Origin: Butyrivibrio sp. Su6
GTDB lineage: Bacteria; Bacillota; Clostridia; Lachnospirales; Lachnospiraceae
DNA: 64,000 nucleotides
Assembly: GCF_900108105.1 (NCBI RefSeq)
Contig: NZ_FNUR01000002.1
Span: 62,001-126,000 of the forward strand
Direction of reading: 5' to 3'
The notes below the pieces were generated by a model. That model was not told where the DNA came from. It worked only from the letters and a program-made list of their open reading frames with translations, and did no database searches. Numbering within the stretch: the first letter of the stretch is position 1; every line of letters begins with the position of its first letter. Shown here one piece after another: positions 40,207 to 42,988 of the stretch. The position numbers were made by a program, and so were the translations under genes.

Positions 40207-40327
40207 CTCTTATTCAGAGTGGTGGAGGTACATAGGACCTATGAAGCCACGGCAACCCCTTGATCATTCAGGAAGGTGCCAACCTGAGCGTGCAATTCCG
40301 TTTTTTCGGACTACGAGCAATAAGAGG
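40207..40327 (+). promoter_or_regulatory. SAM-I (S-box) riboswitch aptamer of metK
   Basis: The P1 arms CTCTTATT (40207-40214) and AATAAGAG (40319-40326) enclose the S-box core: CAGAGTGGTGGAGG, GAAGCCACGGCAACC, and GGTGCCAACC followed by GAGC. It lies directly upstream of S-adenosylmethionine synthetase, so binding of SAM would shut metK off through the following terminator. Confidence 0.93.
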
Positions 40328-40421: not shown

Positions 40422-41612
40422 ATGGATAAATTTATTTTCACATCAGAATCAGTAACAGAAGGACATCCTGATAAAATATGCGATAACATTTCAGACGCAA
40501 TTCTTGATGCATGCATGGAACAGGATCCTATGAGCCGTGTTGCCTGCGAGACAGCAGCTTGTACAGGTTTCGTTCTTATTACAGGTGAGATCACAACAAA
40601 GGCTCACGTTGACTACGCTAAGATTGCCCGTGAGACAATCAAGGAAATCGGATACGACGATTCATCAAAGGGATTTGATGGAAACACATGCGCAGTACTT
40701 GTAGCTCTTGATCAGCAGTCAGCAGATATCGCTATGGGCGTTGACAAGGCTCTTGAAGCAAGAGAGAACCAGATGACTGATGAAGAGCTTTCAGCTATCG
40801 GTGCTGGTGATCAGGGTATGATGTTTGGTTATGCTACAAACGAGACAGATGATTACATGCCTTACGCTATCAGCCTTGCTCACAAGCTCACAAAGAAGCT
40901 TACAGAAGTAAGAAAGAACGGAACACTTCCTTACCTTAGAGCAGACGGTAAGAGCCAGGTTTCTGTTGAGTATGATGAGAATGGAAAAGTTAAGAGACTT
41001 GAAGCTATCGTAATCTCAACTCAGCATGATGAGAAGGTTACTCAGGAGCAGATCCATGAGGATATCAGAAAGTACGTTATTGATGCTGTAGTTGACGGTG
41101 CTATGGTTGATGATGCTACTAAGATCTACATCAATCCTACAGGCCGTTTCGTTATCGGTGGACCTCAGGGTGATGCAGGACTTACAGGTCGTAAGATCAT
41201 CGTTGATACATACGGCGGAGCTGCTCGTCACGGCGGCGGAGCTTTCTCAGGAAAGGACTGCACAAAGGTTGACCGTTCTGCAGCATATGCAGCTAGATAC
41301 GTTGCAAAGAATATCGTGGCAGCAGGCCTTGCAGACAGAGCAGAGATCCAGCTTTCATACGCTATCGGTGTAGCTGAACCTACATCAATTCTTGTAGATA
41401 CATTCGGAACAGGTAAGGTTTCTGATGAAGCTCTTACAACAGCAGTACGTAAGGTATTCGACCTTCGTCCTGCAGGAATCATCAAGATGCTCGACCTTCG
41501 TCGCCCTATCTACAAGCAGACAGCAGCTTACGGACACTTCGGCCGCAACGACCTTAACCTTCCTTGGGAGCAGACAGACAAGGTTGAAGAGCTCAAGGCA
41601 GCAGTTAAGTAA
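40422..41612 (+). CDS. metK: S-adenosylmethionine synthetase
   Basis: A 396-residue MAT of normal length that makes SAM from methionine and ATP. It opens [16 protein letters not shown], contains [12 protein letters not shown] and the [19 protein letters not shown] loop, and ends with the GHFGR segment. Expression is under the SAM-I riboswitch directly upstream. Cytoplasmic; it supplies SAM for the four radical SAM enzymes of the neighbouring RiPP cluster as well as general metabolism. Confidence 0.97.
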
Positions 41613-41705: not shown

Positions 41706-41744
41706 TCCTCAGCCACCCTGTATGGGTTGGCTGAGGATTTTTTT
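41706..41744 (+). terminator. Terminator of metK
   Basis: TCCTCAGCCA (41706-41715) pairs with TGGCTGAGGA (41728-41737), extended inward by CCC/GGG, and is followed by seven T. Confidence 0.9.
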
Positions 41745-41911
41745 GTAATCTCAGCTTGTTGATAAGACCATCTCTCTGGACTTTCTTGGAAAAGTTTAGA
41801 TTGCGGCTCTGAATCCAGGAACAGTAGAGGTGGCTGCTTTCAAGAATGTGTAGGGCTATATGCTCATTTCACTGTGACAATCTGGAGATAGGAACTGATG
41901 TAGGAGTGGAT

Positions 41912-42294
41912 GTAGGATAAATGCTTAGATATTGTTCATCTTATCCTATGGACTTAACAATCCGTATAGTGTGTTTTCTCATGAGTAGGATAACTGCTTG
42001 ATTTTAGCGCTTTTTATCCCACTCTTCTTATCATTTTTGTTAACAATTCTGTTGATTTGTGGGATAAAAACGATAGTTTTTTCGCGTTTATCCTACTTTC
42101 ATTCAAGCGCAGTGTTCAGAAGGCTGAAAATGTAGGATAACTTCAATAGAATTTCAGTTTTTATCCCACGCCTCCGAAAATCGGCTTGGATTGAATAGGA
42201 TAAGTATTATAATTCTTTCGCTTTTATCCTACATCACAGCAGGATTGCTAGGACATAATAGGATAAACGTTACAGTTTTTTGATCTTATCCCAC
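41912..42294. repeat. Array of six ~38-bp palindromic units (GTAGGATAA ... TTATCC(T/C)AC)
   Basis: Units start at 41912, 41985, 42059, 42132, 42195 and 42258 and are 37-38 bp long. Each has a 9-nt left arm (G/A-T-A/G-GGATAA) and an inverted right arm (TTATCC-T/C-A-C), with about 20 variable bases between. Start-to-start distances are 73, 74, 73, 63 and 63 bp. The sequence between arms and between units is not conserved. Confidence 0.85.
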
Positions 42295-42350
42295 ATCTCA
42301 GTTAATCTCACTTTTATCCAATTTGAATCGCCAACCAATAGAAATTGCAT

Positions 42351-42586
42351 TGGGCATATAGCGCTTTTGAAAGCTTCCAGCCACCTTTGATTTTTATTAT
42401 TTTGGGCATATAGCAACTTTTTGCGAGATCAGCCACCCCTCAACTGGGCATATAGGCCGATTTCAAGACTTGGGCCACCCCTTAAAATGGTGGCTGCGGA
42501 CGGATAATCGCCGTATATGCCCAATTGCCTGCGATAAAAGCTTGGGAGAGAGGTGGCTGGAAGCTTGATATCATGCTATATGCCCA
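42351..42586. repeat. Five short units TGGGCATATAG ... GCCACC, three forward and two inverted
   Basis: Forward units begin at 42351, 42403 and 42445; inverted units occupy 42489-42523 and 42552-42586. The first and last share a longer AAGCTTCCAGCCACC and could pair. The terminal inverted repeats of the whole element contain variants of the same unit (GAGCATATAGCCC ... GCAGCC). Confidence 0.75.
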
Positions 42587-42619
42587 AAGCCGAGAAATCG
42601 GAAATTGAGCTATTGAAAA

Positions 42620-42657
42620 CATGACCTAGACATAGGAAAACCATTGATTAGGTCATG
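42620..42657. repeat. 38-bp palindromic unit with different arms (CATGACCTA ... TAGGTCATG)
   Basis: Perfect 9-nt inverted arms enclose 20 bases, giving the same 38-bp total and arm length as the TAGGATAA units, though the arm sequence is unrelated. Confidence 0.6.
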
Positions 42658-42988
42658 AATTTTGTAATTGCAAGGCGTAACAGCATGGCAATATTCGTGC
42701 AGATTGCAGATTAATATATAAATTGCCACAGTAAAATGAGCATATAGCCCTACACATTCTTGAAAGCAGCCGCCCCTACTGTTCCCATCATCTTCACCGT
42801 CGGCAGAGTATTGACGGCGTTTCCAGAAGATTCAGTCAAGGGTGGCGTACGCATTCGTAACAAAAAACATACCGATTATAAATAGAAGAAATTACAAATT
42901 ATTGGACAAAAAATGCGAAGAAAATATTTTCGTAAGTGATAATATCAGTATAGGGAACTAGCGTATTATCGAGGTATTAGGAGAGGGT

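What the first reader, a model, noticed from the sequence alone, without database searches (positions are those of the whole stretch)
41818..42785. 968-bp non-coding element with 66-bp terminal inverted repeats filled with smaller palindromic units
Ends match at 61 of 66 positions in inverted orientation and every difference is a transition; four of the five would be G-U pairs in a minus-strand transcript. This pattern hints at selection on RNA pairing. There is no coding potential.
Basis: seen in the sequence. Interest (0 to 1): 0.72.

Follow-up and report, generated by a model that had tools for sequence, protein, structure and literature searches.

The report
Worn-out copy of foldback-promoter repeat
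The 968-bp stretch is a damaged copy of a repeat found about 30 times in this Butyrivibrio genome; intact copies end in a promoter folded into a long hairpin, a unit that also sits right behind transposase genes in many gut bacteria and was not found in the RNA database or literature searched.

Summary
In detail: 61 of 66 positions match in inverted orientation, all five differences are transitions, and the stretch is non-coding. The element is one of about 33 loci of a 0.5-1.5 kb intergenic repeat family in this Butyrivibrio genome, shared with B. proteoclasticus P18 and strain AE2015. The 66-bp arms are two copies of the family's subterminal sequence; arms of one element are no more alike than arms of different elements, so arm-to-arm pairing is not under selection. 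Intact copies end, on each side, in an outward-facing ~190-nt unit that the window copy has lost through short-repeat deletions. That unit is a sigma-A-type promoter (TTGAYG-N17-TACAAT) inside a long, strongly covarying hairpin, with the -10 box in an unpaired bulge. The same unit lies 22-60 nt behind IS6-like transposase genes in many Clostridia genera, and behind an unrelated IS30-family transposase in Butyrivibrio. In IS6-like elements a terminator often follows, so it looks like a small-RNA gene. Rfam has no match and the paper searches found no description. What the unit does (trans-acting small RNA, single-stranded-DNA promoter, or simple outward promoter) is open. The window copy itself is a relic; the unit is the interesting part.

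The parts
41706..41742 (+). terminator hairpin of metK (TCCTCAGCCACCC..GGTTGGCTGAGGA then T-run), just upstream of the element
   Evidence: (I12)
41790..41809 (-). outer flank sequence type b (AAAAGTTTAGATTGCGGCTC), shared with the outer side of other copies
   Evidence: identity with AE2015 runs to 41809
41810..41827 (-). remnant of the left end unit: first half of hairpin H2 plus direct repeat DR1 (GAACAGTAG); promoter and junction domain deleted between AGAGCC and GGAGCC repeats
   Evidence: compare intact ends
41818..41883 (.). left arm of the 66-bp inverted repeat (subterminal leader of the family)
41909..42320 (.). interior module A: palindromes of the type GTAGGATAA..TTATCCTAC
42346..42590 (.). 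interior module B: TTGGGCATATAGC / GGTGGCTG palindromes
42620..42657 (.). interior module C: hairpin CATGACCTA..TAGGTCATG, also in other copies (e.g. L028)
42720..42785 (.). right arm of the 66-bp inverted repeat
42776..42784 (+). fusion point of direct repeats DR1 and DR2 (CTACTGTTC); about 110 nt with H2, junction and promoter are missing here
   Evidence: against intact ends
42785..42847 (+). remnant of the right end unit: apical loop, 3' half of apical stem and 3' arm (CCATCATC..CACCGTCGG..GTCAAGGGTGGCG), without its promoter

Best explanation
SHOWN: the stretch is a decayed member of a high-copy, non-coding Butyrivibrio repeat family. Each copy has two inverted, outward-facing end units around a mosaic of interchangeable palindromic modules. 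The intact end unit (~190 nt) is a hairpin (H2), a three-way junction and a long stem whose 5' arm contains a sigma-A-type promoter: -35 and 17-nt spacer paired, -10 in an unpaired bulge, an apical hairpin with a conserved loop downstream, and a 3' arm complementary to the -35/spacer. The unit also lies inside IS6-like and IS30-family insertion sequences just 3' of the transposase stop codon; in IS6-like elements a terminator-like hairpin often follows. INFERRED: the unit is an IS-borne small-RNA gene. The promoter starts a short outward RNA whose 3' half is complementary to the promoter arm, and so also to the transposase mRNA 3' UTR, which would let it restrain the transposase (for example by RNase III cleavage). 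The repeats spread or persisted as non-autonomous carriers of these ends, exchanging interiors by recombination. The window copy lost both promoters by deletion between short direct repeats and is probably inert.
For: About 33 loci in own genome; ends of 76 nt up to 97-100% identical between copies and species. Orthologous sites with swapped interiors. Sites of some copies empty in relatives. Covariation: 12 pairs changed on both sides in a MAFFT alignment, 25 of 42 in a wider set, 0/500 shuffles. G-U far more common than A-C on the outward strand (94 v 7 and 59 v 26). Promoter: spacing of exactly 17 in 108 of 120 scored units; in 48 of 49 unit-bearing ends here both boxes are kept, the -10 side is conserved (0.97) and the side opposite it is not (0.71). 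IS context. Terminator-like hairpins. Geobacillus homologue. Fold z-scores -7.9 (DNA) and -8.2 (RNA). No Rfam match.
Against: No transcript, start site or promoter activity was measured. The antisense role is inference; the same covariation would follow from intramolecular folding of mRNA or from hairpins of single-stranded DNA. The array copies carry no obvious terminator after the unit. No target duplication was found for the arrays, so their mode of spread is unknown. Several single copies in other species have no transposase nearby. The IS6-like copy of this genome (L185) lacks the unit.
Confidence: 0.6

Rival explanations
1. The end unit is a promoter that works on single-stranded DNA, like Frpo of F plasmid: the hairpin makes a double-stranded -35/spacer and a pre-opened -10, so RNA polymerase can start RNA or primers when the DNA is single-stranded (transfer, uptake, repair).
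For: Promoter boxes lie on one arm with the complementary arm conserved by covariation and the -10 left unpaired; the single strand folds very stably as DNA. Frpo/ssi elements form secondary structures that mimic double-strand promoters (PMC11541004).
Against: Found in IS ends and chromosomal intergenic repeats, not in leading regions upstream of ORFs; no link to a ssDNA stage was shown. The DDE-type transposases involved are not known to work on ssDNA.
Confidence: 0.25
2. The repeats are ordinary MITEs: non-autonomous IS derivatives moved in trans, and the hairpin is only an IS end.
For: High copy number, TIRs, no coding, homology of ends to IS 3' regions, empty sites in relatives.
Against: The array ends are not the IS terminal inverted repeats (GGTAGTGTCAAAT.. 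of the IS6-like element, ATTGAATAAA.. of the IS30-like one). No target duplication at the one site where both flanks align to empty sites (L027). Interiors are swapped mosaics. A MITE does not explain a covarying promoter hairpin.
Confidence: 0.3
3. BIME-like mosaic of palindromic units kept for chromosome or transcription architecture between genes.
For: Modular palindromes; 12 convergent, 12 co-directional and 0 divergent flanking gene pairs among 24 scorable loci; inward terminator-like hairpins next to many ends.
Against: Patchy: 22 of 79 Butyrivibrio genomes carry the unit at all and only a few have dozens; no RAYT transposase, the only Y1 transposase is IS605-type.
Confidence: 0.15
4. 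One reading: one long folded RNA held by pairing of the two 66-bp arms.
For: Transitions only, 4 of 5 G-U on the minus strand.
Against: Arms of one element no more alike than arms of different ones; 4 of 5 is not significant; in related loci the two ends vary independently of interiors.
Confidence: 0.03

Closest known systems
Frpo / ssi single-stranded DNA promoters of conjugative plasmids (PMC11541004)
   Same: sigma-70-type -35 and -10 boxes inside a strand that folds back on itself
   Different: Here in IS ends and intergenic repeats of Clostridia, 3' of transposase genes; no evidence yet of activity on ssDNA; -35 at the stem base and -10 in a bulge towards the apex
IS6 family insertion sequences
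   Same: Transposase 483 aa matches the IS6 model over the catalytic part, 8-bp target duplication AGAAAGTC in L135
   Different: Score is below the NCBIfam cut-off (71.5 v 125 bits), long N-terminal part outside the model, and a conserved 3' promoter-hairpin unit
IS30 family insertion sequences
   Same: Transposase above the NCBIfam IS30 cut-off
   Different: 13-bp target duplications in G058, and the same 3' unit
MITEs
   Same: Non-coding, multi-copy, inverted ends
   Different: Ends are not the IS termini, no target duplication found, 0.5-1.5 kb mosaic interior
BIMEs / REP arrays of enterobacteria
   Same: Intergenic mosaics of palindromic units, mostly 3' of genes
   Different: No RAYT; two promoter-bearing ends; much larger

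Membership tests
MITE | no coding capacity, many copies | tested here: met
MITE | termini shared with an autonomous IS | tested here: not met
   IS TIRs differ from array ends; only the subterminal 3' unit is shared
MITE | constant-length target duplication | tested here: inconclusive
   none visible at the L027 empty sites; L029 (right end truncated) and L037 (P18 region rearranged) not resolvable
Frpo-like ssDNA promoter | -35 and -10 boxes within a foldback strand | tested here: met
[quoted passage not shown]
   3' of transposases or intergenic
Frpo-like ssDNA promoter | transcription from single-stranded template | not testable with these tools
   needs in vitro transcription
IS-borne small-RNA gene | conserved promoter with correct spacing | tested here: met
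IS-borne small-RNA gene | intrinsic terminator downstream | tested here: inconclusive
   terminator-like AGGTTC..GAGCCT-ATTTTTTT in many IS6-like copies (read by eye; none in the IS30-like copy); no terminator-like site in array copies L019 and the window
known Rfam family | covariance-model match | tested here: not met
BIME/REP-RAYT | RAYT tyrosine transposase in the genome | tested here: not met
   only Y1 transposase is IS605-type beside a TnpB-like gene

The most novel reading that the evidence does not exclude
A promoter built into a hairpin is an independent, transferable control unit of bacterial insertion sequences: two unrelated transposase families carry it directly behind the transposase gene, it makes a small RNA (or works on single-stranded DNA), and in some Butyrivibrio it has been copied into dozens of large transposase-free repeats that could silence or feed on the parent elements.
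Probability: 0.3. Interest if true: 0.8.

Novelty: new variant of a known kind. Interest (0 to 1): 0.6.

Why it matters
A covarying promoter hairpin conserved behind transposase genes across many genera is unexpected for DDE-type insertion sequences. Shared by IS6-like and IS30-like elements, it points to a common way of controlling transposition, or to a promoter that works on single-stranded DNA, and both can be tested at the bench. It also explains about 30 large non-coding repeats in a rumen genus whose genome assemblies break at them.

Tried and rejected
Long-range RNA held by the TIR arms: rejected by the within/between element comparison. REP/RAYT system: only an IS605-type Y1 transposase is present. 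Known structured RNA: no Rfam match even at permissive E-values. IS30-like transposase as the autonomous partner in this genome: absent; the single IS6-like copy of this genome has no unit. Simple MITE: termini differ and no TSD. Paper searches for Butyrivibrio palindromic repeats and for structured RNA or non-coding RNA behind transposases gave nothing relevant; searches for M13/sso hairpin origins also returned no held papers. IS6-like transposase relatives: none in the phage collection, and relatives on Bacillota, Aeromonas and other plasmids at below 60% identity; one of four checked (Geobacillus) has a recognisable unit by covariance model, and L. brevis has a similar hairpin by eye. Bridge-RNA or omega-RNA homology was not pursued because the transposases are not of those types.

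Full report
Observation. The inverted arms are real (61/66, transitions only) and far beyond chance, and the stretch has no ORF. The element is larger than stated: shared sequence runs to about 42851 on the right, and 41790-41809 on the left belongs to the family's outer flank.

Copies. The genome holds about 33 loci of this family. Of 79 Butyrivibrio genomes, 22 carry the end unit, most with one to about ten copies (the scan scores few candidates per genome, so counts are lower bounds). Flanking genes are convergent at 12 loci, co-directional at 12 and divergent at none, by an ORF-based count. Several loci are orthologous between genomes, with near-identical ends and wholly replaced interiors. 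At one site (L027) both P18 and AE2015 lack the element; at two others (L029, L037) P18 lacks it while AE2015 has it. No target duplication could be read.

The end unit. Intact ends are about 190 nt, read outward: hairpin H2, a three-way junction (GCCA/UGGC, CACC/GGTG), then a long stem. On a MAFFT alignment 12 of 42 pairs changed on both sides; on a wider, structure-fitted alignment 25 of 42 did; no shuffle reached either value (the second alignment leans to the structure). G-U pairs greatly outnumber A-C mismatches when the outward strand is read, which says that the outward strand, as RNA or single-stranded DNA, is the selected one. The 5' arm carries TTGAYG-N17-TACAAT: the spacing is exactly 17 in 108 of 120 scored units, and in this genome 48 of 49 units keep both boxes. 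The -10 box is unpaired yet conserved (0.97), while the bases opposite it are not (0.71). That pattern is expected of a promoter, not of a mere stem. The hairpin folds far better than shuffles (z -7.9 as DNA, -8.2 as RNA).

Where else. In Butyrivibrio genome G058 the unit lies 46 nt behind an IS30-family transposase, inside an element with 13-bp target duplications in three copies. In other Butyrivibrio and many other Clostridia genera it lies 22-60 nt behind an IS6-like transposase; 21 of 35 family- and class-level units have that gene detectable upstream, several others being cut by contig ends. L135 shows 8-bp target duplications with the unit inside the IS ends. Behind the unit many IS6-like copies have a hairpin with a T-run (AGGTTC..GAGCCT-ATTTTTTT), so promoter plus terminator frame a ~150-nt transcript (terminator read by eye). 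A Geobacillus plasmid IS of the same transposase family has a similar unit (E 2e-5), and L. brevis a similar hairpin by eye. Rfam has no match.

The window copy. Its right end is a fusion of the two CTACTGTTC direct repeats that flank the promoter arm; its left end is joined through AGAGCC/GGAGCC. Both promoters are gone. The 66-bp arms are what remains subterminally.

Mechanism. Shown: family, anatomy, promoter signature, covariation, IS association. Inferred: that the promoter is active, that the RNA acts, and how the arrays spread. I think a small RNA encoded by the IS, with its 3' half complementary to the transposase mRNA 3' UTR, is the most likely role. A promoter for single-stranded DNA (compare Frpo, PMC11541004) is the main alternative, and a plain outward promoter kept by read-through folding is possible.

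Noticed in passing
window 40207-40326: SAM riboswitch (RF00162, 75 bits) upstream of metK (40422-41612), the gene left of the element.
   Followed up: no
L127, L128, L129 (genome G058): IS30-family element of about 1.94 kb with 13-bp target duplications (AAAATTTGAACTG, TTATTTATTTCTA, CTTATTTTTTATT) and a head-to-tail tandem copy.
   Followed up: partly
L131, L135, L110, L112, L116, L154, L156, L165 and others: IS6-like transposase of about 483 aa with the promoter-hairpin unit directly 3' of the stop codon across many Clostridia genera.
   Followed up: yes
L016 right end, L095 left end, window 42776: Recurrent loss of the promoter arm by fusion of the two CTACTGTTC direct repeats (other ends lacking H2, such as L020 and L070, were not resolved).
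   Followed up: partly
G000, G012, G048, G079 versus G058, G053, G020, G011, G049: Genomes rich in transposase-free arrays have few unit-bearing transposase copies, and IS-rich genomes have few units; small sample.
   Followed up: no
direct repeats before H2 and in the apical loop (L128, L131, L135, array ends): The two copies change together between lineages (GAAGCTGTTCCT, CTGATTGTTCTT, CTACTGTTC), as if bound by the same partner.
   Followed up: no
C23, C6, C19, C3, C7, C12, C15, C22 contig ends of G000: Many contigs of this assembly end inside copies of the repeat, so the true number and interiors are incompletely known.
   Followed up: no
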